Shown: positions 16,445 through 31,723 of the stretch, in pieces
Layout of the letters: each line of letters opens with the position of its first letter
Position numbering within the stretch: position 1 is the first letter of the stretch
Origin: an uncultured Pelagibacteraceae bacterium
GTDB taxonomy: Bacteria > Pseudomonadota > Alphaproteobacteria > Pelagibacterales > Pelagibacteraceae
Length of the DNA stretch: 43,638 nt
Reading direction: 5' to 3'
Assembly (NCBI GenBank): GCA_902592715.1
Contig: CACJFS010000009.1
Span: forward strand, 1-43,638
Notes under the pieces: generated by a model
Seen by the model: the letters and a program-made list of their open reading frames with translations, nothing else
Told to the model about the DNA's origin: nothing
Databases searched by the model: none
Position numbers and translations under genes: made by a program

Positions 16445-17020
16445 TTAAATAAAAAGTTTTAAGTCTGTGTAAATTAATTCAACTGCAACAAACAATATAG
16501 CAAATAAACCAACCCATGCTATCCATTTATATTCTTTTATCCATTTAGAAATTAATGTTGCAGCAGTAGCCATTAAAATAATAGACAAAACAAGACCAAA
16601 TATTAAAAGGAAATAATGATCTTTAGCAGCACCAGCAACACCTAGCACATTATCTAAACTCATCGTAAAGTCAGCTAGTAGAACAGTCCAAACAGCTTTC
16701 AACATTGATGAGTTATCAACTTTGATATTTTCCTCACTATCACTTGAATTTTTAATTACATCTACATAAAGTTTATACACTATGTAAAGAAGCAACAGAC
16801 CGCCAATTAATCTTAAACCTGTAATCTGTAAAAGATATGCTGTTATGAGAGTTAATAAAATTCTTAATATTACTGCTCCACTAATGCCCCAAAAAATAAT
16901 TTTTTTTCTTTGTTCAGGAGGAAACTTTGAAGCAACCATTCCTATAATAATGGCATTATCTCCAGCTAAAATTAAATCTATAAATATTATTTGAAAAAAA
17001 ATTGTTATTTCTTCGGTCAT
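16445..17020 (-). CDS. TerC/YjbE-family integral membrane protein
   Basis: A 191-residue membrane protein of the TerC family. Helices 1-2 contain LIFIDLILAGDNAIIIGMVAS, the family hallmark with the Asp and Asn in GDNA. A second copy of the acidic feature is in LLADFTMSLDNVLGVAGAA. TerC-family proteins move divalent metals (manganese export, MeeF/MeeY-type) or act in metal loading and stress; tellurite resistance is only the historic name. It overlaps the upstream GMC gene by 4 bases (ATGA) and abuts the SDR, so it is in the operon. No yybP-ykoY-like riboswitch was found, since the gene is internal. Confidence 0.86.
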   Translation of the reverse strand: MTEEITIFFQIIFIDLILAGDNAIIIGMVASKFPPEQRKKIIFWGISGAVILRILLTLITAYLLQITGLRLIGGLLLLYIVYKLYVDVIKNSSDSEENIKVDNSSMLKAVWTVLLADFTMSLDNVLGVAGAAKDHYFLLIFGLVLSIILMATAATLISKWIKEYKWIAWVGLFAILFVAVELIYTDLKLFI

Positions 17021-18618
17021 CTAGCATCTTCTATTATCATATCTGCTGCTTTTTCAGCAATCATAATAGTAGGTGCATTAGTATTTCCTGAGGTTATTGA
17101 TGGCATAACAGATGCATCAACAATTCTTAAATTTTCTAAGCCATGAGCGACTAATCGATCAGATACAACTGCATTTTCATCAGTTCCCATTCTACATGTA
17201 CTCACAGGATGAAAAATAGTACTACAAAATTTTCCAGCTTCTTTAGCCAATTCCTCATTATCCGTAATATGAATACCAGGTCTATATTCCTCAGGCTCAT
17301 ACTCTTTATAAGCTTTTGAATTCATAACAATATTTCTTGTGATTTTTAGCGCTTTGCCTGCAATTTCTCTATCTTCGTCTGTAGATAAGTAATTCATCTT
17401 AATTTCTGGAGATACTCTTGTATCAGATGATTTTAACTTAATTGAACCTCTGCTAGTTGGTCTTACATTTGTTATGCTGGGCGTAAATGCCGTAAATTTA
17501 TGAAGGGAACCTTTACCTAACACGTCCGTGCTAGCTGGAGATACATGGAATTGCAAATTAGGAGTTGCTAAATGATCATCACTTTTTACAAATCCACATA
17601 AATAACTAGCCCCAACTGTTAGTGGTCCTTTTCTAAATAAGAAATATTTTAGTCCAGTCATAAACTTTTTAGTCATACTATAATAAATGTCATTTAAGCT
17701 TTCTAAATTTTTAACTTTATAAACTGGTCTTAACATTAAGTGATCTGTTAAATTCATGCCCACACCAGGATGATCTTTGATTACATTTACATTATTTTTT
17801 TTTAAAAGGTCGCCCGGACCAATACCAGAAGCTTGAAGTATATGAGGTGAGCCTATTGTGCCAGAACTTAAAATTACTTCTTTATTTACTTTAACAGTAA
17901 TTACATTCTCACCAATCCAATAATTCACTTTGTCTGCTTTTTTATTATCAAACTCAATGTTCTTTACATGAGCATTCGTTACAACTTTTAAATTTTTTCT
18001 TTTTTTAACTGGATTGAGATAGCCTACGGCAGTACTACATCTTAGACCATTTCTTACTGTAAAAGGAAAATAACCCATTCCTTCATTGTCACCATTATTA
18101 AAATCATCAGTTCTTTTGTGACCAAATTCTTCTGCTGCATCCATAAATAGATCGCACACTTTAAAAGTTCCTCTTATTTGCTGAACTGCCAAAGGACCAC
18201 CAGATCCATGAAATTCATTTTCACCAAATTGAAAATCTTCAGATTTTTTAAAATAGGGAAGCACATCTTCCCATGACCATCCTACATTACCAAGCTGTCT
18301 CCAATAATCAAAATCGTTAGATTGACCTCTAATATAAAGCATTCCATTTATTGAGGAACTTCCACCTAAAGTTTTACCTCTTGGATAAACCATTTCTCTG
18401 TTGTCGCAAAATTCTTCTTTTTCAGTCTGAAAACACCAATCCGTTTTTGGATTCAACATTGTTTTAAAATATCCACCAGGAATATGTATCCATGGATTTG
18501 TATCTTTACTACCTGCTTCAATTAATAATACCTTGTGATTTGGATTAGCACTTAATCTATTTGCTAAAACACACCCAGCTGAACCAGCTCCTAAAATTAT
18601 ATAATCAAAGTTTTCCAT
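17017..18618 (-). CDS. GMC-family FAD oxidoreductase, choline-dehydrogenase-like
   Basis: A 533-residue flavoenzyme. FAD is bound by YIILGAGSAGCVLANRLS (G10, G12, G15). The GMC signatures are YPRGKTLGGSSSINGMLY (about residues 78-95) and SSGTIGSPHILQASGIGP. The catalytic His is in STIFHPVSTCRMG, and the C-terminus has LRIVDASVMPSITSGNTNAP. This arrangement is that of choline dehydrogenase (BetA) and related polyol/alcohol dehydrogenases. I do not name it betA because no betaine aldehyde dehydrogenase betB sits next to it. It is the first gene of a six-gene minus-strand run; 66 bases upstream separate it from the divergent PhyH gene. Confidence 0.9.
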   Translation of the reverse strand: MENFDYIILGAGSAGCVLANRLSANPNHKVLLIEAGSKDTNPWIHIPGGYFKTMLNPKTDWCFQTEKEEFCDNREMVYPRGKTLGGSSSINGMLYIRGQSNDFDYWRQLGNVGWSWEDVLPYFKKSEDFQFGENEFHGSGGPLAVQQIRGTFKVCDLFMDAAEEFGHKRTDDFNNGDNEGMGYFPFTVRNGLRCSTAVGYLNPVKKRKNLKVVTNAHVKNIEFDNKKADKVNYWIGENVITVKVNKEVILSSGTIGSPHILQASGIGPGDLLKKNNVNVIKDHPGVGMNLTDHLMLRPVYKVKNLESLNDIYYSMTKKFMTGLKYFLFRKGPLTVGASYLCGFVKSDDHLATPNLQFHVSPASTDVLGKGSLHKFTAFTPSITNVRPTSRGSIKLKSSDTRVSPEIKMNYLSTDEDREIAGKALKITRNIVMNSKAYKEYEPEEYRPGIHITDNEELAKEAGKFCSTIFHPVSTCRMGTDENAVVSDRLVAHGLENLRIVDASVMPSITSGNTNAPTIMIAEKAADMIIEDAR

Positions 18619-18684: not shown

Positions 18685-19446
18685 ATGTTAAATGAGGATC
18701 AAATTAAACTTTATAAAAATGAAGGTTTAATTAAAAGCCCAACTTGTTTATCCAAAAATAAAGTGGAAGAGCTAAACTCTGCACTCGACAAATATCTTCT
18801 TGATCATAAAAATGAAAATAATGAATTTGTAAGTGGTTTATACGAGAGAGACGAAGCTTTTTTAAGATTTGCACTTTATCCTGAGATAATTGAGGAAGTT
18901 AAACAATTAATAGGTGAGGATATAATTTTATGGGGATCCTCACTTTTCTGCAAAGCTAAAAAAACAGGCAATGAAACACCTTGGCATCAGGATGGAGAAT
19001 ATTGGCCTATTAAACCACTAGAGTCTGTAACTATATGGCTAGCAATTGATGAAGTTACACCTGAAAATGGACCATTACAATATATTCCTGGGTCACATTT
19101 AAATAAAAATCTTGCTGAACATAAAACCCTTGATAAAAAAAATGTAACACTAAACCAGACTTTAAAAAATATTGATCAAATAAAAGACAAGGCAAAGTTT
19201 GTTACTTTGCAGCCAGGAATGTTTTCTATACATGATGTATACTTATATCATGGTTCAAAACCTAATTATTCAGGAAATAGAAGGGCTGGATTAACATATA
19301 GGTATATGCCGGCTACAAGTTTATTCGATCACCAGGGTGCAAAAAAAATTGAAGAAAAAATTGGTTATTCGTTACAACGCCAATTACACCTAGTAAGTGG
19401 ATCCGACAGAGCTAAAAATAAAATTTTTAAAGATCATACTAAATAA
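18685..19446 (+). CDS. Phytanoyl-CoA dioxygenase (PhyH) family Fe(II)/2OG oxygenase
   Basis: A 253-residue non-heme iron oxygenase. Iron ligands are H101 and D103 in TPWHQDGEYWP and H189 in LYHGSKPN; the 2-oxoglutarate-binding Arg is in GNRRAGLTYRY. The N-terminal DQIKLYKNEGLI and ENGPLQYIPGSH segments are characteristic of PhyH proteins, which hydroxylate small molecules such as phytanoyl-CoA, ectoine or alkylphosphonates. It opens the plus-strand operon and is 6 bases before a Baeyer-Villiger monooxygenase. The substrate is not readable from sequence; ectoine hydroxylase is one possibility, but no ectoine synthesis genes are in the window. Confidence 0.88.
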   Translation: MLNEDQIKLYKNEGLIKSPTCLSKNKVEELNSALDKYLLDHKNENNEFVSGLYERDEAFLRFALYPEIIEEVKQLIGEDIILWGSSLFCKAKKTGNETPWHQDGEYWPIKPLESVTIWLAIDEVTPENGPLQYIPGSHLNKNLAEHKTLDKKNVTLNQTLKNIDQIKDKAKFVTLQPGMFSIHDVYLYHGSKPNYSGNRRAGLTYRYMPATSLFDHQGAKKIEEKIGYSLQRQLHLVSGSDRAKNKIFKDHTK

Positions 19447-19452
19447 TTTTAA

Positions 19453-21048
19453 GTGAAAAAATTTGATTGTATAATAGTAGGGGCTGGATTTTCAGGACTA
19501 TATCAACTTCATTGTTTGAGAAATAAATTAAAATTAAACACTTTGGTCTTAGAAGAAGGAGATGATCTAGGAGGTACATGGTATTGGAATAGATACCCAG
19601 GAGCCAGATGCGACTCAGAAAGTTTTACTTATGGTTTTACTTTTTCAAAAAAAATATTTAAAAACTGGACTTGGAAAGAAAGATACCCAAAGCAGAATGT
19701 AATTTTAAAATATCTTAAATATTTTTCAAAAGAATTAAATCTTAAAAAAAATATAGTTTTTAAACAAAAGGTAATTTCTGCACAATATTTTGAAAAAGAA
19801 AACTTATGGAAAATAAAAACCAATAATAAGAAAATTTACTTGGCAAAATATTTAATATGTGCAGCTGGATCACTTTCATCAATTAATGTTCCAAAAATAA
19901 AAGGAATTAATCAATTTCAAGGTCAATTACACCATAGTGGAAGATGGCCTAAAAAAAATATTAATTTTAAAAATAAAATTGTTGGACAAGTTGGAACGGG
20001 CTCCACTGGAATCCAGATTGCACCAGAAATTGCCAAAAAAGCAAAAAAATTGATTTTATTCCAGAGATCTCCAAACTTTAGTATTCCAGCAAGAAATAGA
20101 AAATTATCCGCCGCAAACATTAAAAACTACAAAAAAAATTTTAATAAATTAAGAAGCTATTTAAAAAGGACACCGGGCGGTCATCCTTTTGAATTTCCAA
20201 AAAAATCAGCGTTCGATTTTGACGAAGCTAGAAGAAATTTAATGTACGAAAAATCTTGGCAGTATGGAACCTTATCCTTTAGAGCAACTTTTAATGACAT
20301 AGTAAAAACCATCAAAGCAAATAAAACAGCAGTTAAATTTATTGAAAATAAAATATACTCAACAGTTAAAAATAGAGAGTATGCAAAGATCCTTACTAAT
20401 TTTGACCACCCATTTACTGCTAAAAGACCAACCTTAAATACAAATTATTATGAGATGTTTAATAAAAAAAATGTTGAATTAGTTGATTTAAAAGAAAACC
20501 CAATAGTAAAAATCACTAAAAAAGGGATTAAAACAAAAAAAAATGAATACACACTAGATAAAATCATATTTGCAACAGGTTTTGATGCTTTGACAGGTTC
20601 AATTGAAAAATTAAATATAACTGGAAAAAAGGGAATTAAATTGACTAGATATTGGAAAAGTGGACCTAAAAGTTTTTTAGGACTTCTTGTTCCTAACTTT
20701 CCAAATATGTTTATAGTTAGTGGTCCAGGAAGTCCCTCAGTATTAACAAATGTACCAGTGCAAATAGAACAGCATGTTGAATGGATTACTAAATGTATTA
20801 AGTTTTTGGAAAATAATAAAAGACAAAGTATAGAAAGTACAAATGAAGCAGCAAAAAAATGGCAAAAAGAAATTACGAGCTCAGTTAAAAAAACATTATT
20901 TATGAAAGCAAAAAGCTCGTGGTATAAAGGCGACAATATACCTGGCAAGTCGAAGTCCTTTTTACCTTATCCTGGGGGAATGCCAAAATATAGAAAAGCT
21001 TGTTTAAAAGTTCAGAAGACTAATTATAAAGAATTAAAAATAATCTAA
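19453..21048 (+). CDS. Baeyer-Villiger flavin monooxygenase (cyclohexanone monooxygenase-like)
   Basis: A 531-residue FAD- and NADPH-dependent enzyme that inserts oxygen next to a ketone to give an ester or lactone. FAD motif: IIVGAGFSGLYQLH. GGTWYWNRYPGARCD is the classic CHMO signature. The Baeyer-Villiger fingerprint FxGxxxHxxxWP is perfect at F155, G157, H161, W165-P166. The NADPH site is VGQVGTGSTGIQIAPEI. Length fits type I BVMOs. It starts with GTG (19453), 6 bases after the PhyH stop; no upstream ATG fits. Its stop abuts the FKBP-rhodanese start. The preferred ketone is unknown. Confidence 0.92.
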   Translation: MKKFDCIIVGAGFSGLYQLHCLRNKLKLNTLVLEEGDDLGGTWYWNRYPGARCDSESFTYGFTFSKKIFKNWTWKERYPKQNVILKYLKYFSKELNLKKNIVFKQKVISAQYFEKENLWKIKTNNKKIYLAKYLICAAGSLSSINVPKIKGINQFQGQLHHSGRWPKKNINFKNKIVGQVGTGSTGIQIAPEIAKKAKKLILFQRSPNFSIPARNRKLSAANIKNYKKNFNKLRSYLKRTPGGHPFEFPKKSAFDFDEARRNLMYEKSWQYGTLSFRATFNDIVKTIKANKTAVKFIENKIYSTVKNREYAKILTNFDHPFTAKRPTLNTNYYEMFNKKNVELVDLKENPIVKITKKGIKTKKNEYTLDKIIFATGFDALTGSIEKLNITGKKGIKLTRYWKSGPKSFLGLLVPNFPNMFIVSGPGSPSVLTNVPVQIEQHVEWITKCIKFLENNKRQSIESTNEAAKKWQKEITSSVKKTLFMKAKSSWYKGDNIPGKSKSFLPYPGGMPKYRKACLKVQKTNYKELKII

Positions 21049-21792
21049 ATGAATAAAATCAAATTCTTAATAATATATTTCTATTTGGTTTGTAATGTTT
21101 TTGCAGCAGATATAGAAATTATTGTTGATAAGCCAGGTGAAGGAAAAAAAATTATTAATCACTCATGGGTTCAAATTGAATACACAGGTTCTTTTGTTGA
21201 TGGAAAAGTTTTCGATACCAACGTTGGAAAAGATAGACCTTTAGTTGTTCAAATAGGTATGAAAGAAGTTATACCTGGTTTTGAAATGGGTATAGTTGGA
21301 GCCAATAAAGGAACTGTCAGAAAAATTAAAATACCTGCTGAACTAGCATATGGAGCAACAGGTGCTGGAAATATAATACCGCCAAACTCTGATCTTATTT
21401 TTGAGTTCAAGATTATTGATGTTCTAGATCCAAATTATAATTTAATCACATCTGACGAATTAAATAAATTATTGAATAAAAATGCAGTAGTTTTAGATAT
21501 TAGAACAGAAGACCAATGGATAAAAACTGGTGTAATTAAAGAGTCGTTTCAAGAAACAGCTTTCGATAAAAATGGAAAATTTAATGTTTATCTAATGGAT
21601 AGAGTAAGAGCTTTAGCTGGTGCAGAGTCTCAAAATATTGAAATTATTTTTGTTAGTCATGATGGTGAAACAGCATCAATTTTAGGCAATGCTTTTGCAG
21701 AAGATCTTGGTTTTAAAAATGTTTACGTTCTAGATGGAGGAATTAAAGCTTGGATTAGTGAGAAAAAAGCATTAGTTTCCTTCTTAAAATAA
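21049..21792 (+). CDS. Secreted fusion of FKBP-type peptidyl-prolyl isomerase and rhodanese domain with Cys-to-Ser active site
   Basis: A 247-residue protein with a signal peptide (FLIIYFYLVCNVFAA). It has an FKBP domain at about residues 30-125 (VQIEYTGSFVDGKVFDTN, VIPGFEMGIVG, AYGATGAGNIIPPNSDLIFEF) and a rhodanese-like domain at about 132-245 (AVVLDIRTEDQW, VYVLDGGIKAW). The position of the rhodanese catalytic cysteine carries Ser (S203 in IIFVSHDGETAS), so sulfur transfer by the usual mechanism is unlikely and the domain may bind a partner instead. Its FKBP active-site aromatics look largely intact. The start directly follows the BVMO stop, so expression is tied to the catabolic operon. 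Function is not established. Confidence 0.87.
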   Translation: MNKIKFLIIYFYLVCNVFAADIEIIVDKPGEGKKIINHSWVQIEYTGSFVDGKVFDTNVGKDRPLVVQIGMKEVIPGFEMGIVGANKGTVRKIKIPAELAYGATGAGNIIPPNSDLIFEFKIIDVLDPNYNLITSDELNKLLNKNAVVLDIRTEDQWIKTGVIKESFQETAFDKNGKFNVYLMDRVRALAGAESQNIEIIFVSHDGETASILGNAFAEDLGFKNVYVLDGGIKAWISEKKALVSFLK

Positions 21793-21810
21793 CGTCAAAT
21801 CATTTAAAAA

Positions 21811-22590
21811 ATGAAACTTAAAGATAGGGTAGCAATAGTTACAGGCGGAGGAAAAGGAATAGGACAAGAAATTTGTCTTGGTCTTGTAAAAGAAGGTGCA
21901 AAGATTGTTATCGCAGAAATAGATATTGAAAATTCAGAAAAAGCAAAAAAAAAAATTATAGAGGCAGGCAGTGAAGCAATAATTATAAAAACTGACGTTT
22001 CAAATCAAAAGAGCATTAACGAGATGGTAGATCAAACTATCAAACATTACGGTAAAATTGATATTCTAATAAACAATGCAGGAATAAGACATGTTAAGAA
22101 ACTTTTAGATCACACAAAACAAGATTGGGATGATATGATTTCTGTAAATCTTACAGCACCTTTCCTTGCTAGTCAGGCTGTAATTCCTCATATGATTAAA
22201 AATGGAAAAGGCAAAATTATTAACTTTGGGTCTATAGCAAGTTTTATGGGAAGGCCAGATAGGGTGGGATATGTAGCTGCTAAGAGCGGTGTCTTAGGCT
22301 TAACAAGAGCATTATCTGTCGATCTAACTGGAAAAAATATTAATGTAAACACTATTTGTCCAGGTTTAATTTCTACCTCATTTAATCAAAAATATGCTGA
22401 AGATCCAACACATGGCGAAGCCTGGGGAAAAGAAACTGTGGTAGGTAGATGGGGAGAACCAAAAGATATAGTTGGAGCAGCAGTATTTTTATCAAGTGAT
22501 GAATCTGATTTTATAAATGGATCTGAAATTAAAATTGATGGTGGGTGGCTCTCTTCAAAAGTTAGAAGAGGTGAATTAGATAATGAGTAA
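21811..22590 (+). CDS. Short-chain dehydrogenase/reductase
   Basis: A 259-residue classical SDR. It shows the cofactor loop in AIVTGGGKGIGQEICLG, LINNAGIRH, catalytic Ser in NFGSIASFMG and Tyr-Lys in VGYVAAKSGVLGL, then FINGSEIKIDGGW. It oxidises or reduces a small alcohol/ketone with NAD(P). It overlaps the following aldehyde dehydrogenase by 8 bases, so translation is coupled. The upstream gap of 18 bases links it to the BVMO-FKBP pair. Together with the ALDH and hydroxyacid dehydrogenase it forms a textbook oxidation chain, but the starting compound is unknown. Confidence 0.92.
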   Translation: MKLKDRVAIVTGGGKGIGQEICLGLVKEGAKIVIAEIDIENSEKAKKKIIEAGSEAIIIKTDVSNQKSINEMVDQTIKHYGKIDILINNAGIRHVKKLLDHTKQDWDDMISVNLTAPFLASQAVIPHMIKNGKGKIINFGSIASFMGRPDRVGYVAAKSGVLGLTRALSVDLTGKNINVNTICPGLISTSFNQKYAEDPTHGEAWGKETVVGRWGEPKDIVGAAVFLSSDESDFINGSEIKIDGGWLSSKVRRGELDNE

Positions 22591-24100
22591 CTTTGAAAAA
22601 AATCTTGAACAAGCGCTTATTAATGCAAAACGATTAACGGATAAAATTTTAATTGATGGCAAATTAGTATCTGCTCAATCAAAAAATAAAATACCAGTAT
22701 TAAATCCAAGCACAGGTGAAAATATTGGTTCTGCTCCTCAATGTGATAAAAGTGATGTTAATATTGCAGTTGAGTCGGCGCACAAAGCTTTTCAAAAATG
22801 GAAAAAAATACCAGCAAGGGAAAGAGGAAAAATGGTTGCTGCCGGAGCAAAAAGATTAGAGGAAAGAAAGTCTGAAATAGAAACTTTATTATCATTAGAT
22901 ACAGGTAATGCTTTAAGAACACAGGCCATACCAGAAACAGGTGCCTCCATTGAACTTACAAATATGTTTGCTGGTTTGTCTGGAGAGTTAAAAGGGGAAA
23001 ATTATCCAACCAATATTCCAAATAGTATTCATTACACCACTAGAGATCCAATTGGCGTTGTTTGTGCAATCGTCCCTTGGAATGCGCCATTATTTTTAAC
23101 AGTAGCAAAAATTGCTCCAGCTATTGTAGCAGGAAATAGTGTTGTTTTAAAAACAGCTGAACAAGCTCCATTTTGTGCTCTTCTACTATCGGAGATATTT
23201 CAACAAGAACTTCCTCCGGGTGTTTTAAATGTAATTTCAGGCTATGGAGAAGAGTGTGGCGAACCTCTGGTAACTCATGATAAAGTAAGAAAAGTAACGT
23301 TTACTGGATCTTTTACTGTAGGAAAGATTATAGCACAAAAAGCAGCTCCTAAATTATGTCCAGTTACTTTAGAGCTTGGAGGAAAAAATCCAAATATAAT
23401 AATGAGTGATGCAGATTTAGATATTGCAATTCAAGGGGTTATTGATGGAATGAGATATACACGACAAGGACAAGCATGTACTGCTGGATCAAGAGTTTAT
23501 ATTCAAGAAAAAATTTATGACAAAGTTTTGGATGGAGCTGTTGAAAAATTAAGTAAATTAAAAATGGGTAATGCTCTAGATGAAAGTTCTGATATAGGAG
23601 CTATTATTTCCGAAGAACAACTGAAAAGAACTTTATATTATATGGATATTGCCAAAAAAAACTCTACAACCAACGTTGTGCATGGTGGCAATCAACTAAG
23701 AGGTGGTGATTATAAAAATGGTTTCTTTTATGAGCCTACATTGATGTCAGGTGTTCCAGTAAGCTCTCCAGTTTGCCAAGAAGAAATATTTGGTCCTGTT
23801 GCTTGTGCAATACCATTTAAAACATTTGATGAAGTAATGAACAGTGCAAATGATACACCATTTGGATTGTCAGCGGTATTGTGGACACAAAATTTATCTA
23901 GAGCTTTACAGTTTGTTGAAGAAATTGAAGCAGGTTTCGTTCAAGTGAATCAATGTGTAGCGCCTAGAGCTAATGTTTCATATGGTGGATTAAAAATGAG
24001 TGGCTTAGGAAAAGAGTATGCATTTGATAGTATGGTTAATCATTTTACTCAAAGTAAAACAGTTTTGATTAATAGAGGAAAATCAAATATAGATAATTAA
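22583..24100 (+). CDS. NAD(P)-dependent aldehyde dehydrogenase
   Basis: A 505-residue ALDH that oxidises an aldehyde to its acid. The catalytic Cys is C299 in GQACTAGSR and the general-base Glu is E264 in TLELGGKNPNI. The cofactor region is VVCAIVPWNAPLFLTV, with KTAEQAP and the FTGSFTVGK loop. Length and motifs fit the betaine-aldehyde/glycine-betaine-type ALDH superfamily, but the substrate cannot be fixed. It overlaps the SDR by 8 bases and is 2 bases from the hydroxyacid dehydrogenase. It is not next to a choline-specific partner on this strand, so a betB label is not justified. Confidence 0.92.
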   Translation: MSNFEKNLEQALINAKRLTDKILIDGKLVSAQSKNKIPVLNPSTGENIGSAPQCDKSDVNIAVESAHKAFQKWKKIPARERGKMVAAGAKRLEERKSEIETLLSLDTGNALRTQAIPETGASIELTNMFAGLSGELKGENYPTNIPNSIHYTTRDPIGVVCAIVPWNAPLFLTVAKIAPAIVAGNSVVLKTAEQAPFCALLLSEIFQQELPPGVLNVISGYGEECGEPLVTHDKVRKVTFTGSFTVGKIIAQKAAPKLCPVTLELGGKNPNIIMSDADLDIAIQGVIDGMRYTRQGQACTAGSRVYIQEKIYDKVLDGAVEKLSKLKMGNALDESSDIGAIISEEQLKRTLYYMDIAKKNSTTNVVHGGNQLRGGDYKNGFFYEPTLMSGVPVSSPVCQEEIFGPVACAIPFKTFDEVMNSANDTPFGLSAVLWTQNLSRALQFVEEIEAGFVQVNQCVAPRANVSYGGLKMSGLGKEYAFDSMVNHFTQSKTVLINRGKSNIDN

Positions 24101-24102
24101 AA

Positions 24103-25029
24103 ATGACAGATCAAATAGCATTTATCGGTGTAGGTAACATGGGTAACCCAATGGCAGACCAATTAGTTAAAGCTGGTAAAAAAGTTAAAGCTTACGATGT
24201 TTCGCCAGAAATGATTCAAAAAGCAAAAGATGCTAATTTATATGTTGTTGACTCATTAGATGAGGTGCTTGAAGGGGCAAATTTTGTAATCTCAATGTTG
24301 CCTGAAGGTAAACATGTAAAATCACTATTTTTAGGAGATAAAGGTATAATAGATAAAATTTCAAAAGATGCTCTAATAATTGACTGTTCAACAATAGATA
24401 TTGAAACTTCTTTACTACTAGGCAAGGAAGCAAAAAATAGAGGAATTAAAATGATTGATGCACCTGTTACTGGAGGTGTTATGGGAGCAAGAGTTGGAAA
24501 ATTAAATTTTTTAGTTGGTGGGGATGATGAGGCTGTAAATTTAGCCAGACCATTAATGGATATTATGGGACAAAAAATTTTACATGCAGGACCACAAGGA
24601 AGTGGAGTTGGAGTAAAGATTTGTAATAATATGTCTTTAGGAATTTCAATGATAGCAGCATCAGAAGCTTTAATGTTGGCAAAAAGACTTAAGATGGATT
24701 TAAAAAAAGTTCACGAAATCATGAAGAATGCATCAGGAAATAATTGGGCATTATCAACTTATACTCCTTTACCTAATTTAACTGATGGTGTTCCATCAAA
24801 TAATAAATATCGTCCTGGTTTTTCAGCTGCAATGATGACCAAAGATCTTAAATTAGCTAATGATGCTGCGAAATCAGTAAATGCTTCAACACCATTAGGG
24901 AAACATGCCTTAGATATATTTAATGAATTTTGTGAGGGTGGTGATAGCGAAACAGATTATTCAGGTATATCCAAAAAAATCGGTGGAGATGCTTGGGATT
25001 ATCCTTTTGACCCCAAGGGTAACAAATAG
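24103..25029 (+). CDS. 3-hydroxyisobutyrate dehydrogenase family protein
   Basis: A 308-residue beta-hydroxyacid dehydrogenase. The NAD-binding motif is IAFIGVGNMGNPMADQL. The substrate-binding segment is DAPVTGGVMGARVGKLNFLVGGD, and the catalytic Lys is in GVGVKICNNM. It oxidises a beta-hydroxyacid to a semialdehyde; valine breakdown (mmsB) is the classic case, but the other valine genes are absent here. Its likely partners are the two upstream dehydrogenases and the TRAP transporter downstream (124-base gap). Family certain, substrate inferred only from context. Confidence 0.9.
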   Translation: MTDQIAFIGVGNMGNPMADQLVKAGKKVKAYDVSPEMIQKAKDANLYVVDSLDEVLEGANFVISMLPEGKHVKSLFLGDKGIIDKISKDALIIDCSTIDIETSLLLGKEAKNRGIKMIDAPVTGGVMGARVGKLNFLVGGDDEAVNLARPLMDIMGQKILHAGPQGSGVGVKICNNMSLGISMIAASEALMLAKRLKMDLKKVHEIMKNASGNNWALSTYTPLPNLTDGVPSNNKYRPGFSAAMMTKDLKLANDAAKSVNASTPLGKHALDIFNEFCEGGDSETDYSGISKKIGGDAWDYPFDPKGNK

Positions 25030-25153
25030 TTACTATTAAACTTCAAGTTGTATTAATTAAGAGTGTTGCAATTAATCGTTTTACATTTAGTGACCAATGA
25101 GTTTTACTTCCACAATTATTAAGACTTAATAACAATAAAGAGAGGGATAAATA
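25030..25153 (+). promoter_or_regulatory. Promoter and ribosome binding region before dctP
   Basis: A 124-base AT-rich gap separates the dehydrogenases from dctP. Just before the dctP ATG stands AAGAGAGGG (about 25138-25146), a clear Shine-Dalgarno 7 bases upstream, which is rare here and fits the high expression typical of substrate-binding proteins. TATA-like stretches lie in the middle, but I cannot assign a -35/-10 pair with confidence. No terminator is visible after the dehydrogenase gene. Confidence 0.45.
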
Positions 25154-26242
25154 ATGAAAAAAATCACATCAATGATTTTAGCTTTAGTATTTGCAGTTTC
25201 AGTAATTGGATCTGCTTCTGCTAAAACATTAAAAATCCAACTTACTTTTCCTAAAACATCATACGATGGACAAATCGTAAAAATGTGGACTGACAGAGTA
25301 ACAAAATTAACTCGTGGAGAGTTAAAATTTGAACTTCTTTCTAAAGGTGAAGTTGTTGGTATGAAAGAAACACTAGAAGCTGTTGACAAAGGTCTAGTAG
25401 ATGGTGGTGCAGCATGGACTCACTACTGGTCAAACTATCACCCAGCCGCGATGCTATTTGGATCGCCAGTTGCTGGTGGAGGAATTGGTTTAAGTACTAA
25501 ATCTTGGTTAGCATGGTATTTCGATAATGGTGGTAAAGAATTATACGACCAATTATGGAGCGAAATGGGAATGAATGTTAAAGGTTTCGTGATGGCATCA
25601 TCAGGACCTGAAGCATTAGGTTGGTTCAAAGAGCCAATTAAAAACATGGATGATTTCAGAAAATACAGATTTAGAACTCCTCCAGGAATTCCAGGACAAA
25701 CATACAAAGATATCGGTATTGCATCAGTATCTTTATCAGGTGGTGATATATTACCAGCACTTGAAAAAGGAACTATCGATGCTGCTGAATGGTGTTGTCC
25801 AAAACCAGACTCAGTTTTTGGTTTTCAAAAAGTTCTTAAAAACTACTATCTACAAGGATTACACCAAAACGTAGTTAATGGTGATATCTATATTAATGGA
25901 GATGTTTACAATTCTTTAACTGACCATCAAAAATATGCAATGGAAGTTGCATCTGAAGCGATGATCACAAGAAACATCACTAATAGAGCTGTAGAAAATG
26001 GGAAAGCGTTAATTGACCTTACTGAAAATCACGGTGTAAAACTTTGGGATACACCAGCTGATTATTTCACTGAGTACATGAACGCTGCTCAAGCAACTCT
26101 TAAAAAGAATGCTGCATCGAATGCTTTCTTTAAAGAAGTTTATGAGCACATGACTGCACATGCTAAAATTGTAGTACCTTTTATTGCACAAATGGAAACG
26201 TCTGATGCATCAATTGGAACTGCATTCGCATCACAACAGTAA
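25154..26242 (+). CDS. dctP: TRAP transporter periplasmic substrate-binding protein (DctP type, TakP-like subgroup)
   Basis: A 362-residue protein with a signal peptide (MKKITSMILALVFAVSVIGSASA). The mature part has the DctP layout, with the conserved Arg region FRKYRFRTPPG. The ALEKGTIDAAEWCCPKPDSVFGFQKVLKNYYLQG segment resembles TRAP binding proteins for 2-oxo and hydroxy acids (TakP-like). It captures an organic acid in the periplasm for DctQM. It has a strong Shine-Dalgarno and is followed by a terminator, both consistent with higher expression than the membrane subunits. The ligand is not determinable; a carboxylate is likely because of the conserved Arg. Confidence 0.93.
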   Translation: MKKITSMILALVFAVSVIGSASAKTLKIQLTFPKTSYDGQIVKMWTDRVTKLTRGELKFELLSKGEVVGMKETLEAVDKGLVDGGAAWTHYWSNYHPAAMLFGSPVAGGGIGLSTKSWLAWYFDNGGKELYDQLWSEMGMNVKGFVMASSGPEALGWFKEPIKNMDDFRKYRFRTPPGIPGQTYKDIGIASVSLSGGDILPALEKGTIDAAEWCCPKPDSVFGFQKVLKNYYLQGLHQNVVNGDIYINGDVYNSLTDHQKYAMEVASEAMITRNITNRAVENGKALIDLTENHGVKLWDTPADYFTEYMNAAQATLKKNAASNAFFKEVYEHMTAHAKIVVPFIAQMETSDASIGTAFASQQ

Positions 26243-26251
26243 GCAAAATAT

Positions 26252-26289
26252 AAAAACGGGGATTGTGTTTAAAAATCCCCGTTTTTTTT
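26252..26289 (+). terminator. Rho-independent terminator/attenuator between dctP and dctQ
   Basis: A perfect 12-base-pair inverted repeat (AAAAACGGGGAT with its complement) surrounds an 11-base loop and ends in eight T residues. It lies 9 bases after the dctP stop and before the dctQ start at 26322. This would stop most transcripts after the binding protein and let a fraction read through to the membrane subunits, as is common in binding-protein-dependent operons. Confidence 0.92.
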
Positions 26290-26321
26290 ACAAATTTAAT
26301 TTAAATAAATATACTTGTTAA

Positions 26322-26978
26322 ATGGTTGATAAAGACTCAGAACCAAAGGTTAAAGAAAATCTAGATATCACAGATGAGCTTATAGCTGAAAGAAGAACAA
26401 GTTTAAAAATGCCAGAGGATATGACTCCTTGGATGGCAAAAACAATAGAATTTATAGACTCGAAAATGTTGATTACCGGCAAGATATTTGCCTGGTTAAC
26501 TATTTTTCTGATTTATGCAATGATCCATGAGGTTATTGGAAGGCATTTTTTTAATAGACCAACTTTATGGTCATTTGACATAAGTAGAATGTTGGCAGGT
26601 GCTTTATTTATGCTTGGAGCAGCATATACATTATCAAAAGGTATTCATATTAGAGCTGATTTTCTTTATCGAAATTGGTCAGTAAAAAATCAGGCAAGAG
26701 TAGATTTATTTTTATATTTAATATTTTTTATACCAGGGTTTCTCGTATTTTTCTTTGTGAGTTTTGATTATGCTTATACCTCAATTTGTGGAAGGTCCAA
26801 TTTAGAAGAATGTTTAGGTGGCAAAGTAAGAATTCAAAGAGCAATGGATACAACTTGGATGCCAATTATGTGGCCTTTAAAAAGTTGTATGCCAATTGGC
26901 GCATTTTTACTTTTAGTACAAGGTGTATCCGAAATTTTAAAAACTTATTATGCTTTTGTTAAGGGGAGATGGCCATAA
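26322..26978 (+). CDS. dctQ: TRAP transporter small membrane subunit DctQ
   Basis: A 218-residue protein with a long polar N-terminus (about 60 residues rich in Asp/Glu/Lys) before four hydrophobic segments. Recognisable DctQ parts are WLTIFLIYAMIHEVIGRHFFNRPTLWSFDISRMLAGALFMLGAAYTLSKGIHIRADF. It pairs with DctM in the inner membrane; transport is driven by a sodium or proton gradient. The N-terminal extension is longer than in many DctQ proteins. Its stop overlaps the chosen dctM start (TAATG). Confidence 0.9.
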   Translation: MVDKDSEPKVKENLDITDELIAERRTSLKMPEDMTPWMAKTIEFIDSKMLITGKIFAWLTIFLIYAMIHEVIGRHFFNRPTLWSFDISRMLAGALFMLGAAYTLSKGIHIRADFLYRNWSVKNQARVDLFLYLIFFIPGFLVFFFVSFDYAYTSICGRSNLEECLGGKVRIQRAMDTTWMPIMWPLKSCMPIGAFLLLVQGVSEILKTYYAFVKGRWP

Positions 26979-28309
26979 TGGATTTCTTTAGTCCAGAAAT
27001 TATCGGAGCAATAATGATCGGTTGCATGCTATTTGCAATCTTTGTCGGGTTTCCAATTTCATTTACTTTAATATTTTTAGGCCTTGTTTTTGGATATTGG
27101 GGTTTTGGTAAATTAGTATTTTACTTAATGACCCTTCAATTCAATATGATTATGACGGAGAACACACTCGCTGCCGTGCCACTCTTTATTTTTATGGGAA
27201 TTTTAATGGAACAAGCAGGTCTAATGGAACGATTGTTTAATGCAGTTCAATTAATGCTTTCTAAGACAAGAGGAGCTTTGTTTTATGCAGTAATGTTTGT
27301 CTCAACAATTTTTGCAGCTGCAACTGGAATTGTTGGTGCATCAGTTACAATCTTAGGGATTATGGCAGGCAAAACTATGATTAGAACTGGTTATGATACT
27401 AGGCTATCTGCTGGTTTAATCTGTGCTGGTGGAACTCTTGGAATATTAATTCCTCCAAGTATAATGTTAGTTGTAATGGGACCTGTTTTAGAAATTCCTG
27501 TTACAGATTTATTTGCTGCTGCTATAATGCCAGGAATTTTATTAGCATGCTTGTATGCTGCTTATACAACATTAAGATGTTATCTTAATCCAAAACTTGG
27601 ACCTGTTTTACCAGCAAACGAACAACCAACTAATATGGCTAAGGTTTGGTATGAATTTATTATGGGATTAATTCCCCCTGCAGGTTTAGTTTTTTTTGCA
27701 CTAGGAAGCATTCTATTTGGTCTTGCTACTCCAACCGAAGGAGCTGGTATGGGAGCGTTTGGTGCCATCTTACTTGCACTAGCATATAAAAAATTAACTC
27801 TCCCAGGTTTGAAAGATGCTCTTTTAAAAACTTTAGAGATTACAGCTTTAATAATGTTTTTAGTTGCTGCATCGAACTTTTTTGGAGCAGTATTCTCAAA
27901 ATTAGGAACTCCATCTCTGTTAACTGATTTCCTTTTAAATTTAGAGGTAAATAGATATGTAATATTAGCAATTATAATGGCTGCTATTTTTTTATTAGGA
28001 TGGCCTTTAGAGTGGGTACCAATAGTTTTAATAGTATTGCCAATTGTATTACCTTTAGTAATAGAGTTAGGATTTAATCTTACTTGGTTTGCAATATTAG
28101 TGGCCGTTAATCTCCAAACCGCCTGGCTCTCACCTCCTGTCGCATTATCTGCTTATTTCTTAAAAGGTGTAGTTCCAGAGTGGGATTTAAAAGATATTTA
28201 TCTTGGCATGATGCAATTCATGGTTATCCAAGTCATTGGTTTAGTATTAATTATAATATTTCCAAAAATAGCATTATGGTTGCCTGGGGTAATGTACCCA
28301 TCACCTTAG
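26978..28309 (+). CDS. dctM: TRAP transporter large membrane subunit DctM
   Basis: A 443-residue protein with about twelve hydrophobic segments, the transport-forming subunit. Typical DctM stretches include GLVFGYWGFG, AAATGIVGASVTILGIMAGK, CAGGTLGILIPPSIMLVVMGP and ATPTEGAGMGAFGA. I chose ATG 26978, which lies 9 bases after an AAGGGGAG Shine-Dalgarno and overlaps the dctQ stop by one base. The slightly longer frame from 26969 would place its ATG directly against that site. It completes the dctPQM set; the downstream gene is convergent and overlaps by 4 bases. Confidence 0.93.
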   Translation: MDFFSPEIIGAIMIGCMLFAIFVGFPISFTLIFLGLVFGYWGFGKLVFYLMTLQFNMIMTENTLAAVPLFIFMGILMEQAGLMERLFNAVQLMLSKTRGALFYAVMFVSTIFAAATGIVGASVTILGIMAGKTMIRTGYDTRLSAGLICAGGTLGILIPPSIMLVVMGPVLEIPVTDLFAAAIMPGILLACLYAAYTTLRCYLNPKLGPVLPANEQPTNMAKVWYEFIMGLIPPAGLVFFALGSILFGLATPTEGAGMGAFGAILLALAYKKLTLPGLKDALLKTLEITALIMFLVAASNFFGAVFSKLGTPSLLTDFLLNLEVNRYVILAIIMAAIFLLGWPLEWVPIVLIVLPIVLPLVIELGFNLTWFAILVAVNLQTAWLSPPVALSAYFLKGVVPEWDLKDIYLGMMQFMVIQVIGLVLIIIFPKIALWLPGVMYPSP

Positions 28310-29199
28310 CTAGGCTTATTTATTTGAGGTATAATAGTTCCAATTAAAATTATTGCTAAGGATATAAAAACCTTTGTTGAAATCGGAGAGTCGATTATTA
28401 ACCAAGACATTGTAGCGCCAATAGGACCTGTTAAAGGATACATCAAACTAATTCTACCCACCGGAACTCTTCTAAGAGCAAAATTATAAAATAAATATGC
28501 TCCAAATGTTATACAAGATAAAGTTATAGCTGCTAAAACTGGAGGTGAAAAATTTAGATAATTTTGATATTCAAAACTTGAATTTGGCCAAATTATAAAA
28601 AGAACTAATAAAGAAAGTATAGCACCAATAAAATATTGATAAGTATTAACCCCCAATTGATCAACTTTAGTTTGCATAAATCTTCTTCCCAAAACTTCGT
28701 TAACAGAAACGCAAATCATTCCTAAAAAAATTATTAAATCACCAACGTAATTTCCTTGTCCCGACTTTGTTTGACTTGTAAGTAAAATTAAAGTTCCAAT
28801 AATTGTTATAAATGCTCCAATAATTACTTTTATTTCAATTTTTTCTTTTAAAAAAATTCTTGCAACAAATGGTTGCCATATTGGCAAAGTACTAATTAAA
28901 GCAACTCCATTTACTGGTGAGGTTAACAGAAGACCAATATGAAAACTTAAAGTAACTAGAAAAGGGTTTAATAAACCCATTAAGAAGGGCGTAAACCCAA
29001 TTCTTTTAATTTTTAAATCTGCTCTCATGATCAAAGCAAAAATTAACATCAAACTAAATGCTAAAGAGAATCGTACCGCCATTAAGTCCATTACATAAAA
29101 TTCCTGTAATGCTAATTTTACAAATGGCGGACCTGATCCAAAGCCTATCACTGCCACGAACATAGAAACGTAGCCGATATTGTTTTTTAGAAAATTCAT
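28306..29199 (-). CDS. DMT-superfamily transporter (EamA family)
   Basis: A 297-residue membrane protein with ten hydrophobic segments arranged as two EamA repeats. Clear parts are FVKLALQEFYVMDLMAVRFSLAF in the first half and RRVPVGRISLMYPLTGPIGATMSW in the second. Such proteins move metabolites, often exporting amino acids or their derivatives. It is monocistronic by layout: it converges with dctM (4-base overlap) and diverges from the NCS1 permease with 65 bases between. Substrate and direction are unknown. Confidence 0.87.
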   Translation of the reverse strand: MNFLKNNIGYVSMFVAVIGFGSGPPFVKLALQEFYVMDLMAVRFSLAFSLMLIFALIMRADLKIKRIGFTPFLMGLLNPFLVTLSFHIGLLLTSPVNGVALISTLPIWQPFVARIFLKEKIEIKVIIGAFITIIGTLILLTSQTKSGQGNYVGDLIIFLGMICVSVNEVLGRRFMQTKVDQLGVNTYQYFIGAILSLLVLFIIWPNSSFEYQNYLNFSPPVLAAITLSCITFGAYLFYNFALRRVPVGRISLMYPLTGPIGATMSWLIIDSPISTKVFISLAIILIGTIIPQINKPS

Positions 29200-29264: not shown

Positions 29265-30716
29265 GTGAGTCAGAATATAGAATTAAAAAATTTTGAATTA
29301 GCCACAGTAAATCCAAGCAACAAAACATGGACATCAATTGATTTATTTTGCTTTTGGGCTAATAGTATACAAACCATTGCGGGTTTCGCATTAATAGCCT
29401 CTTTGTATTTAATATATAACCTTAGTACGGTACTTGTCTTAACTTCTTCATTAGCCGCCTCTATATTGATTTATTTTTTTATTTCATTGATTGGCAAACC
29501 ATCACAGAAGCATGGATTACCTTTTCCCGTTATGCTTAGAATGTCTATGGGCTTAAATGGAGCCAAATTTTTAAGTCTTTTAAGATCTGTTATTGGTATT
29601 TTTATGTTTGGTATTCAAACATTTTTCATATCAAAATCAATTACATATCTAATTAGAATTTTTATTTACTATAACTTGGATAGTCAAATTTTAGATGGTC
29701 AAGTATTTTTAGCTTTTTTTCTAGGGTTAAATATTATCGACTGGGTTTCATTAATATTAACTTTTGTTATTCAATATTTTTTATTTACAAACGGACAAAG
29801 GTTTAATCAAAGATTTTTACAGTTTTCAGCCATTTTCGTTTATTTAGGTTTATTTATTTTTTTTTTAATTTTAACTTCTGAAAATCACACACAAATTTTT
29901 CAGTCTCTTAAATCAAATACAACAGACGGAAATTTTTTTTCAAGATCTAACATTTTACCTTTTATAGTTTTAACGGGTACAATATTCTCTTACTTCTCCA
30001 TTGTGTTGTTAAATTTTGGAGATTTTTCTAGATACGTCAAAACAGAAAAAGATCTAAAATTGGGAAATCTAAATCTTTTTCTAAATATGATTTTGTTTTC
30101 TTTTTTAGCAACAACTATAGTTGTTGGAGTTGATGTAGTTTTAAATCAAAAGCTTATTGTTGTTGATCAAATACTCACTAAACCAATGGATATTATTGGA
30201 AAATTAGACAACACTGGCCTAACTGTTTTTGTTCTAATTTTTATAATTTTCTCATCTCTATCTACTAATTTAATTTCTAATTATGTGCCTACACAAAACA
30301 GTATAATAAATTTTATTCCTAATAATTTAGATCTTAAAACTTCTGGATTATTAATTTTATTAATTGGTTTTATTGCTGGAGGTTTGTGGCCTTCTTTTTT
30401 AAGTCAAATAGGTGTAATAAATATTATTGATAGCTTGGCAGCTTTTTTTGGCCCTATCTTTGGCATTATAATTGCAGATTACTACTTAGTGAAAAAAGAG
30501 AAGGTAAATCACAAAGATCTATTTTTCTTAAGAGAGGGAAATGAGTACATGTACGCTAGTGGCTGGAACTATAAAGCGTTGTATTCACTTCTTATAGGCT
30601 TTATTTTTTCATTTTCATTGCTTTGGAACATTAATTTTTCAGATATAAAATCGTTTTCTTGGATTATAGGATTTGTCGTTTCGTTTTTTATATATTATCT
30701 TCTAAATGAAAAATAA
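29265..30716 (+). CDS. NCS1-family nucleobase/hydantoin:cation symporter
   Basis: A 483-residue membrane protein with about twelve hydrophobic segments and the NCS1 pattern. These include FCFWANSIQTIAGFALIASL in helix 1, the GLPFPVMLRMSMGLNGAKFLSLLRSVIG stretch, NFGDFSRYV in the middle and ADYYLVKKEKVNHKDLF near the end. NCS1 members import cytosine, allantoin, hydantoins, uracil or thiamine-type compounds with sodium or protons. The GTG start at 29265 is the first available codon. It is followed 2 bases later by a zinc alcohol dehydrogenase, so the two could serve one substrate. Nucleobase type unresolved. Confidence 0.87.
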   Translation: MSQNIELKNFELATVNPSNKTWTSIDLFCFWANSIQTIAGFALIASLYLIYNLSTVLVLTSSLAASILIYFFISLIGKPSQKHGLPFPVMLRMSMGLNGAKFLSLLRSVIGIFMFGIQTFFISKSITYLIRIFIYYNLDSQILDGQVFLAFFLGLNIIDWVSLILTFVIQYFLFTNGQRFNQRFLQFSAIFVYLGLFIFFLILTSENHTQIFQSLKSNTTDGNFFSRSNILPFIVLTGTIFSYFSIVLLNFGDFSRYVKTEKDLKLGNLNLFLNMILFSFLATTIVVGVDVVLNQKLIVVDQILTKPMDIIGKLDNTGLTVFVLIFIIFSSLSTNLISNYVPTQNSIINFIPNNLDLKTSGLLILLIGFIAGGLWPSFLSQIGVINIIDSLAAFFGPIFGIIIADYYLVKKEKVNHKDLFFLREGNEYMYASGWNYKALYSLLIGFIFSFSLLWNINFSDIKSFSWIIGFVVSFFIYYLLNEK

Positions 30717-30718
30717 TT

Positions 30719-31723
30719 ATGAAGGCATTAGTTTATACAGGCGTTGAAGAACTGATCTATAGAGATGAAAAAGATCCAGTTGAGACAAGTGGAGAGAGCA
30801 TATTAAAGGTCCATGCATCTGGCATATGTGGGTCAGATATGCATGCATATCACGGCAAAGATGAGAGAAGAATTGCTCCTTTAATAATTGGTCATGAAGT
30901 GAGTGGTGTAATTCAAAATGGTAAATTCCAAGGAAAAAATGCTGTTTTGAATCCATTAATTACTTGCGGAAAGTGTGAATATTGCACAAGTGGAAGAGAG
31001 CATTTGTGTCCACACAGAGTTCTTCTAGGTATGAACAGACCATACGAGAGACAGGGTGTCTTTGCTGAATTAGTCTCTTCTCCTAATCAAAATATTTATG
31101 AGGTTCCAGATCATCTAAATCTTAATGAAGCGGCTATAGCAGAACCAACAGCAGTTGCTTTGCATGCTGTCTTAATGGGAGAAAGTTCGCTTACGAAACC
31201 TTTATCTGAATGTAGAACTTTAGTTCAAGGTGCTGGAGCAATTGGATTATTGTGCTCTTTAATATTATCTAAAACTAAAGGAAATACAGATATTGTTATG
31301 TCTGATCCAAATAATTTGAGACTAACAAAATGTTCAAAATATTTCGATGGAAAATTTGTTCATCCATCAGACAAAGAAATACAAAATGATAGTTTTGATA
31401 TTGTATTTGATACAGTAGGCTTAGAAGTTTCAAGACAACAATCGATCTCGGTTATAAAACCTGGTGGTACCATAATACATATTGGGTTAACTCAACCAGC
31501 TGGGCAGTTCAATTTTAGAAAAGCAACTTTACAAGAAGTCACCTTTATTGGGACTTATTGTTATACTAATAAAGACTTTGAAAACACCATCAAAATTCTA
31601 GCAGATAAGAAAATTGGAGAATTAGACTGGATTGAGTATAGAGAGTTAAAGAAAGGTGCAGAAGCCTTCAAACAAATTCATGATGGAAGTTGTTCATCAC
31701 CAAAAATTGTTCTGTTACCTTAG
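30719..31723 (+). CDS. Zinc-dependent alcohol dehydrogenase (MDR family)
   Basis: A 334-residue medium-chain dehydrogenase. The catalytic zinc site is C37 in GICGSDMHAY and H59-E60 in IIGHEVSG. The structural zinc cysteines are C83, C86, C89 and C97 in CGKCEYCTSGREHLC. The NAD-binding part is LVQGAGAIGLLCSLI with an acidic residue in DIVMSDPNN pointing to NAD. It resembles sorbitol/threonine/galactitol dehydrogenase-like members. Its gene lies 2 bases after the NCS1 permease. Substrate unknown; a polyol or hydroxyl amino acid is a guess. Confidence 0.9.
   Translation: MKALVYTGVEELIYRDEKDPVETSGESILKVHASGICGSDMHAYHGKDERRIAPLIIGHEVSGVIQNGKFQGKNAVLNPLITCGKCEYCTSGREHLCPHRVLLGMNRPYERQGVFAELVSSPNQNIYEVPDHLNLNEAAIAEPTAVALHAVLMGESSLTKPLSECRTLVQGAGAIGLLCSLILSKTKGNTDIVMSDPNNLRLTKCSKYFDGKFVHPSDKEIQNDSFDIVFDTVGLEVSRQQSISVIKPGGTIIHIGLTQPAGQFNFRKATLQEVTFIGTYCYTNKDFENTIKILADKKIGELDWIEYRELKKGAEAFKQIHDGSCSSPKIVLLP

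What the first reader, a model, noticed from the sequence alone, without database searches (positions are those of the whole stretch)
18685..28309. Oxygenase-dehydrogenase-TRAP locus for an unidentified organic substrate
PhyH dioxygenase, Baeyer-Villiger monooxygenase, FKBP-rhodanese fusion, SDR, ALDH and a hydroxyacid dehydrogenase run on one strand with gaps of 18 bases or less, some overlapping. A TRAP importer follows after 124 bases. The enzymes form a logical chain: hydroxylation, oxygen insertion next to a ketone, ester or lactone product, alcohol to aldehyde to acid. I know of no described pathway with exactly this set. The missing piece is an obvious esterase/lactonase; the hydrolase at 3891 is distant.
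Basis: partly seen in the sequence, partly recalled or inferred. Interest (0 to 1): 0.72.

Follow-up and report, generated by a model that had tools for sequence, protein, structure and literature searches.

The report
SAR11 oxygenase and uptake gene cassette
A minority of SAR11 ocean bacteria carry a compact set of oxidising-enzyme genes tied to its own version of a nutrient importer, probably to eat one still unidentified small organic acid.

Summary
Observation confirmed: nine co-directional genes at the stated coordinates, in a Pelagibacteraceae genome. Interpretation partly supported. In 43 of 43 fetched loci without the enzymes, a GMC gene and the TRAP genes are directly divergent, 110-148 bp apart. 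A BVMO is in 20 of 297 genomes of the order; in 18 of these 20, BVMO-FKBP/rhodanese-SDR-ALDH-HIBADH-DctPQM-EamA stands together at that site (one genome is cut by a contig end, one has its BVMO elsewhere). The importer belongs to the set: block DctP and DctM each fall on one side of a branch, apart from the other TRAPs at the site, while the flanking GMC tree needs at least four changes. A 17-bp palindrome at 25116-25132 precedes block dctP only. Against one fixed pathway: PhyH is in only 8 of the 20, an HxlR gene splits the set in some loci, and the rhodanese domain lacks its cysteine. Likely chain, inferred: SDR, BVMO, unknown hydrolysis, HIBADH, ALDH, on an imported oxo- or hydroxy-carboxylate. 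The substrate is unknown.

The parts
18685..19446 (+). PhyH-type Fe(II)/2-oxoglutarate dioxygenase; optional member
   Evidence: PF05721 105 bits; H101, D103, H189 invariant in 7 aligned; in 8 of 297 genomes, all 8 with BVMO
19453..21048 (+). Type I Baeyer-Villiger monooxygenase
   Evidence: phenylacetone monooxygenase E 1e-143, D54 and R325 align with PAMO D66 and R337; 20 of 297 genomes
21049..21792 (+). FKBP-rhodanese fusion with signal-like start; rhodanese part without catalytic Cys
   Evidence: PF00254 and PF00581; Ser at the Cys place in 24 of 24 block copies
21811..22590 (+). Short-chain dehydrogenase (SDR)
   Evidence: PF13561/PF00106; 73-100% identical in the 12 block loci compared
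22583..24100 (+). Aldehyde dehydrogenase
   Evidence: PF00171 506 bits; in 21 of 297 genomes, including all 20 with BVMO
24103..25029 (+). 3-hydroxyisobutyrate-type dehydrogenase (HIBADH)
   Evidence: TIGR01692 350 bits, cut-off 291.6; over-cut-off copy in 7 of 7 block and 0 of 3 non-block genomes tested
25116..25132 (.). Operator-like palindrome TTATTAAG-A-CTTAATAA before dctP
   Evidence: exact in the window and in 22 of 23 block loci, 1 mismatch in G011; best match 4 or more mismatches in 43 of 43 non-block loci; at up to 1 mismatch one site in 4 of 5 whole genomes, two in G011; reversed control 2 in G000, 0 in the other four
25154..26242 (+). DctP, TRAP solute-binding protein of TakP-like type, block-specific group
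   Evidence: PF03480; alignment to TakP; tree; model vs PDB
26322..26978 (+). DctQ, small TRAP membrane subunit
   Evidence: PF04290
26969..28309 (+). DctM, large TRAP permease
   Evidence: PF06808, TIGR00786 over cut-off; block group in tree
28306..29199 (-). EamA permease that goes with the block
   Evidence: PF00892; in 23 of 23 block rows that reach it, in none of 43 non-block loci
17017..18618 (-). GMC oxidoreductase, left border of the site (flank, not cargo)
   Evidence: PF00732/PF05199; borders dctP directly in 43 of 43 non-block loci

Best explanation
A lineage-variable catabolic cassette that sits between a GMC gene and the TRAP genes of Pelagibacter and goes with its own TRAP type and an EamA permease. 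SHOWN by comparison: the enzymes and their DctP/DctQ/DctM/EamA are inherited together at one site, and dctP is preceded by a conserved palindrome that other SAR11 dctP genes at the site lack. INFERRED: DctP binds a small carboxylate with an oxygen next to the carboxyl group together with a cation, as TakP does; DctQM import it; the SDR makes a ketone; the BVMO inserts oxygen to give an ester or lactone; this is hydrolysed spontaneously or by an enzyme not in the cluster; HIBADH oxidises the released hydroxyacid to a semialdehyde; ALDH makes the acid for central metabolism. PhyH, where present, adds a hydroxyl and widens the substrate range. The FKBP/pseudo-rhodanese is a periplasmic folding helper, perhaps for DctP. 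The cassette claim I hold at about 0.8, the reaction order at about 0.3; the number below is for the whole.
For: Same order in 18 of the 20 BVMO genomes, the other two being cut (G056) or displaced (G011). ALDH in all 20 BVMO genomes and in 1 of 277 others (Fisher 3e-30, kinship not corrected). 43 of 43 non-block loci have GMC|dctP with nothing between. DctP (24 of 67 rows) and DctM (23 of 66 rows) of block loci fall on one side of a branch with SH-aLRT 100 (quick trees), whereas the GMC tree needs 4 changes. 4-fold sites are near random between sub-lineages for most genes, so the order has been kept for long. BVMO catalytic D and R conserved. DctP: TakP R177, Y100, E214, W215 kept as R174, Y91, E212, W213; best PDB folds are TakP and relatives, among them alpha-ketovalerate- and lactate-binding proteins. 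Palindrome.
Against: No lactonase or esterase in the cluster. TakP Q156 and E240 are swapped to E153 and Q238. G011 has FKBP-SDR-ALDH-HIBADH-TRAP at the site but its BVMO (56%) lies elsewhere next to xsc. G131 and G279 have the block TRAP but no BVMO was found; their contigs break inside the block. The DctP model is weak (pLDDT under 50) around the binding site. The block is in 1 of 11 genera sampled, so independent events are few. No expression data.
Confidence: 0.45

Rival explanations
1. Two functional modules side by side: a core SDR-ALDH-HIBADH-TRAP-EamA catabolic set, and an accessory (PhyH-)BVMO-FKBP set with another substrate.
For: HxlR gene between FKBP and SDR in 3 loci (L066, L067, L071) and wider 62-63 bp spacing there in 3 more (L068, L069, L098); BVMO away from the site in G011; PhyH in 8 of 20; among the block loci scanned whole, no palindrome within 2 mismatches other than the one before dctP, apart from one 13 kb off in the window and one in L070.
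Against: BVMO never found without the ALDH in 297 genomes, also when displaced in G011; FKBP-SDR gap of only 20-26 bp in the window clade and L097.
Confidence: 0.27
2. BVMO oxidises a small volatile ketone (acetone- or butanone-like) that enters by diffusion; the TRAP serves another acid.
For: Acetone monooxygenase is a BVMO acting on small ketones (PMC6215540, abstract start in a listing); microbial acetone oxidation in seawater is reported (PMC4033308, abstract start in a listing).
Against: The TRAP type is tied to the block; a volatile ketone needs no dedicated carboxylate importer (inference); closest solved relatives are phenylacetone and steroid monooxygenases.
Confidence: 0.13
3. Mere neighbourhood: cargo genes inserted at a variable site, no link with the TRAP.
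For: Accessory genes vary (PhyH, HxlR, PanB-like).
Against: No other cargo in 43 of 43 non-block loci; DctP/DctM subtype follows the cargo and not the flank.
Confidence: 0.08

Closest known systems
Cyclopentanol/cyclohexanol degradation clusters (cpn, chn; gene content recalled, from no call)
   Same: alcohol dehydrogenase, type I BVMO, hydroxyacid dehydrogenase and aldehyde dehydrogenase in one cluster
   Different: no lactonase gene here; the hydroxyacid dehydrogenase is of HIBADH type; a TRAP importer and FKBP/pseudo-rhodanese are added
TakP TRAP binding protein of Rhodobacter sphaeroides (PMC1839085, passages)
   Same: best sequence and fold match; Arg, Tyr, Glu, Trp of the cation/2-oxoacid site kept
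   Different: Gln156 and Glu240 exchanged for Glu and Gln; here linked to oxidative enzymes and a palindrome
SAR202 BVMO/SDR model for recalcitrant DOM (PMC5395668, passages)
   Same: SDR makes ketone, BVMO makes lactone, further oxidation to acids, in ocean bacteria (a proposal from genomes)
   Different: SAR202 enzymes are FMN/F420-type (type II) paralogue families, not one FAD-type BVMO in a run with a TRAP
Phenylacetone monooxygenase (1w4x)
   Same: whole-length match, catalytic D and R
   Different: other context; the place of PAMO R258 holds Pro in the window

Membership tests
Type I Baeyer-Villiger monooxygenases | fingerprint F-x-G-x-x-x-H-x-x-x-W-[P/D] (recalled) | tested here: met
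   window residues 155-166; pattern found in 24 of 25 BVMO rows scanned; L097 has Y for F
Type I Baeyer-Villiger monooxygenases | catalytic Asp and Arg (PAMO D66, R337; roles recalled) | tested here: met
   D54 and R325, invariant in 7 aligned
Type I Baeyer-Villiger monooxygenases | converts ketones to esters with NADPH and O2 | not testable with these tools
   needs assay
PhyH 2-oxoglutarate dioxygenases | HxD...H iron triad (recalled) | tested here: met
   H101, D103, H189 invariant in 7
TakP (cation-dependent 2-oxoacid TRAP binding protein) | Arg177, Tyr100, Glu214, Trp215 | tested here: met
   R174, E212, W213 in 23 block and 43 non-block rows; Y91 in 8 rows; TakP roles
TakP (cation-dependent 2-oxoacid TRAP binding protein) | Gln156 and Glu240 as cation ligands | tested here: not met
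   E153 and Q238 in 23 block and 43 non-block rows; so 'TakP-like', not filed as TakP
3-hydroxyisobutyrate dehydrogenase (TIGR01692) | score over curated cut-off | tested here: met
   350.4 vs 291.6 bits
Active rhodanese | catalytic Cys in the active loop (recalled) | tested here: not met
   Ser in 24 of 24 block copies; Cys kept in 5 of 11 other alphaproteobacterial fusion hits
cpn/chn cycloalkanol clusters | lactonase in the cluster (recalled) | tested here: not met
   no hydrolase among the block genes
Choline dehydrogenase BetA (GMC neighbour) | TIGR01810 cut-off | tested here: not met
   483.5 vs 732.1 bits

The most novel reading that the evidence does not exclude
Some SAR11 lineages carry a movable, separately controlled cassette that imports and opens small alicyclic or branched oxo/hydroxy-carboxylates of the slowly degraded DOM pool (CRAM-like) by a Baeyer-Villiger route, with a TRAP subtype evolved for that ligand class.
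Probability: 0.12. Interest if true: 0.8.

Novelty: new variant of a known kind. Interest (0 to 1): 0.52.

Why it matters
SAR11 is usually seen as a streamlined eater of simple labile compounds (general knowledge). A cassette with a BVMO, tied to its own TRAP subtype where most relatives examined have the ordinary TRAP, marks a substrate difference between SAR11 lineages and gives a short, testable protein set (DctP, SDR, BVMO, HIBADH, ALDH) to identify it.

Tried and rejected
Hydrolase 3891-4769 as the missing esterase: a first look gave 6 of 6 genomes with BVMO at the site and 0 of 4 others, but with the wider test it was 17 of 20 BVMO genomes against 22 of 61 non-block genomes, ten of the latter with copies 87-89% identical (Fisher 2e-4, kinship not corrected); G131 and G279 also have it and were left out of both groups. 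The 61 were picked by me (54 of the genus, 7 of other genera), not drawn at random. Its nearest solved relatives are Alr0039 (3qyj) and fluoroacetate dehalogenases. Rejected as a dedicated partner.

Sulfonate link through xsc beside the G011 BVMO: xsc is in 9 of 10 genomes tested, so the nearness says little.

FKBP-rhodanese fusions outside the window (10 of 384 other class genomes) are 30-39% identical and, within about 1.5 kb, show no block gene except an SDR-like stretch in L090. ALDH relatives in the class and ALDH and DctP relatives on plasmids are under 60% identical; their neighbourhoods were not read.

Recent transfer as the cause of DctP identity: 4-fold sites are near the random level (37-45%, worked out for three genes) for most genes against L066-L069 and L098; DctP alone stays at 65-73%, with strong codon bias; not resolved. 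RNA hairpin at the palindrome: none favoured. PhyH structure model failed (pLDDT 32). Promoter and terminator consensus scan: fewer than in shuffles (31 vs 45; 3 vs 5.2).

Papers: searches (no hit), 45, 71, 72, 75, 93; passages only of PMC12636525 (no 'monooxygenase' or 'TRAP' in its main text), PMC5069961 and PMC2704228, PMC1839085, PMC10703444 and PMC5395668; no paper was read whole. I found no description of this gene set in those searches of the held open-access library; most subscription papers are not held, among them a 2024 study of SAR11 binding proteins that I know from recall and did not see.
Full report
Observation. One search gives the nine ORFs at the stated coordinates on the + strand. 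Pfam and NCBIfam confirm the families (DctQ by Pfam only). The enzymes are separated by 6, 0, 18, -8 and 2 bases; DctP follows after 124, DctQ after 79, DctM overlaps by 10. A converging EamA gene overlaps the end of DctM by 4 bases. The window is contig C9 of a 1.08 Mb, 78.5% complete genome. A named single-cell genome with the same block and neighbours at 93-100% identity (L094, AG-908-D05) is Pelagibacteraceae.

Distribution. The BVMO is in 20 of 297 genomes sampled from the order, the window's included, all of one genus. ALDH at E<=1e-220 is in 21 of 297: the same 20 plus G131. DctP relatives at 86% or more are in 21: 19 of the BVMO genomes plus G279 and G131; G056 has no match at the threshold, and its BVMO and ALDH lie at contig ends. 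PhyH is in 8 of 297, all BVMO genomes. So ALDH, BVMO and the DctP subtype go together; PhyH is an option.

Gene order. I fetched the loci of all 19 other BVMO genomes and of G279 and G131. In 18 of the 20 BVMO genomes (the window, L052-L064, L066-L069) the order BVMO-FKBP/rhodanese-SDR-ALDH-HIBADH-DctP-DctQ-DctM-EamA is kept; in L066 and L067 an HxlR-type regulator gene stands between FKBP and SDR and a PanB-like gene between GMC and PhyH; L068 begins at PhyH, so its GMC is not seen. The other two: G056 is cut by a contig end, and G011 (one contig, 99% complete) has FKBP-HxlR-SDR-ALDH-HIBADH-TRAP at the site without PhyH and BVMO; its BVMO, 56% identical, lies after xsc, about 13 kb before FKBP and 18 kb before dctP. 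G131 and G279 are cut by contig ends. The single-cell loci L094, L095 and L098 have the full order, L096 and L097 as far as their contigs go; they may overlap with the G genomes.

The empty site. In 43 of 43 loci from genomes without the block (3, 40, picked from the listed DctP matches at 60-63% identity, so genomes without such a match were not looked at), the GMC gene and dctP are directly divergent with 110-148 bp between and no EamA. The enzyme block thus occupies a junction that is otherwise empty in those examined.

The TRAP belongs to the block. A quick tree of 67 DctP puts all 24 block copies on one side of a branch with SH-aLRT 100; DctM (66 rows, 23 block) likewise (roots are midpoints). 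The tree of the flanking GMC (67 rows, 24 block) needs 4 changes of the block label, and starred branches force 4. For example, GMC of the window and L066 are 63% identical, as are those of the window and non-block L074, but DctP is 96% against 63%. There are 91 fixed differences between 23 block and 43 non-block DctP. Either the block with its TRAP moved among lineages by recombination at this site, or an old polymorphism was sorted; both say that enzymes and importer are kept together. A quick TerC tree is poorly resolved: 6 changes, only 1 forced.

An operator-like element. Between HIBADH and dctP a perfect palindrome, TTATTAAG-W-CTTAATAA (window 25116-25132), begins 37-41 bases before the dctP start. 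It is exact in the window and in 22 of 23 block loci and has one mismatch in G011; the best match before dctP in 43 of 43 non-block loci has 4 or more mismatches. Against the window the palindrome keeps 16 or 17 of 17 bases in 8 of 8 loci compared, while the 60 columns before it keep 26-39 of 54-60 in 7 of the 8 and 54 of 60 in the near relative L052. In whole genomes, at up to one mismatch, it occurs once in G000, G088, G141 and G250 and twice in G011 (one of the two inside a permease-like ORF); the reversed control pattern gave 2 in G000 and 0 in the other four, so single one-mismatch matches can be chance. RNA folding does not favour a hairpin there. I read it as a binding site for a regulator not yet known; HxlR is seen in only three block loci.

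What the proteins say. The BVMO aligns over its length with phenylacetone monooxygenase; D54 and R325 match PAMO D66 and R337. The SAR11 BVMOs group together, G011 as the outermost with moderate support (SH-aLRT 90, quick tree). PhyH keeps its iron triad. HIBADH of the block is the only copy over the NCBIfam cut-off in 7 of 7 block genomes tested; 0 of 3 non-block genomes have one. The FKBP-rhodanese begins with a signal-like stretch (by eye), and the rhodanese loop has Ser for Cys in 24 of 24 block copies. DctP aligns best with TakP; TakP binds pyruvate with a cation through Arg177, Tyr100, Glu214, Trp215, Glu240 and Gln156 (PMC1839085, passages). The window has R174, Y91, E212, W213, but Q238 and E153, an exchange of the last two, in block and non-block alike. 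A model with mean pLDDT 67, under 50 in 149-157, 171-178, 182-223 and 236-241, which hold most of the site, matches TakP (Z 25.5) best and, further down, proteins with alpha-ketovalerate (Z 23.7) and lactate (Z 22). So a carboxylate with a neighbouring oxygen is the likely ligand class for both TRAP types, with a different best ligand; this is inference.

Mechanism. I propose: import by the TRAP; SDR makes a ketone; BVMO makes an ester or lactone; hydrolysis by an enzyme outside the cluster or spontaneously (a ketone with a hydroxyl next to it gives an ester that falls apart into acid and aldehyde; general chemistry, not shown here); HIBADH makes a semialdehyde; ALDH the acid. This mirrors the cyclopentanol and cyclohexanol routes (recalled) without their lactonase, and the SDR-BVMO logic proposed for SAR202 (PMC5395668, passages).

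Verdict. Not an artefact and more than chance. A new variant of a known kind of catabolic cluster; the main new points are the block-specific TRAP subtype at a shared locus, the palindrome, the optional PhyH and the dead rhodanese. 

Noticed in passing
window 3891-4769: Alpha/beta hydrolase of the fluoroacetate-dehalogenase-like family; found in 17 of 20 BVMO genomes and 22 of 61 non-block genomes tested.
   Followed up: yes
L070 6188-11687 (G011): xsc, then BVMO, SDR and a DAO-type oxidase in a row; upstream a UxaA-type protein (PF20629) and, by eye only, AprA-like and TauE-like ORFs.
   Followed up: partly
window 17017-18618: The GMC oxidoreductases of the window clade (18 rows) sit on a long branch (0.89) apart from the other 49 SAR11 GMC copies in the tree.
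   Followed up: no
window 25154-26242: DctP keeps 65-73% identity at 4-fold sites with sub-lineages in which most neighbouring genes are near random; those third positions are almost only A or T.
   Followed up: partly
window 29265-31723: After the NCS1-type permease stands a zinc ADH in most block loci, but an SDR (30-38% to the block SDR) in most non-block loci and in G011 and G279.
   Followed up: no
L066 3342-4160: PanB-like gene between GMC and PhyH, seen only in L066 and L067 among the block loci and in none of 43 non-block loci.
   Followed up: partly
L083-L093: FKBP-rhodanese fusions in other Alphaproteobacteria: 5 of 11 hits keep the rhodanese Cys, 6 of 11 have lost it.
   Followed up: no
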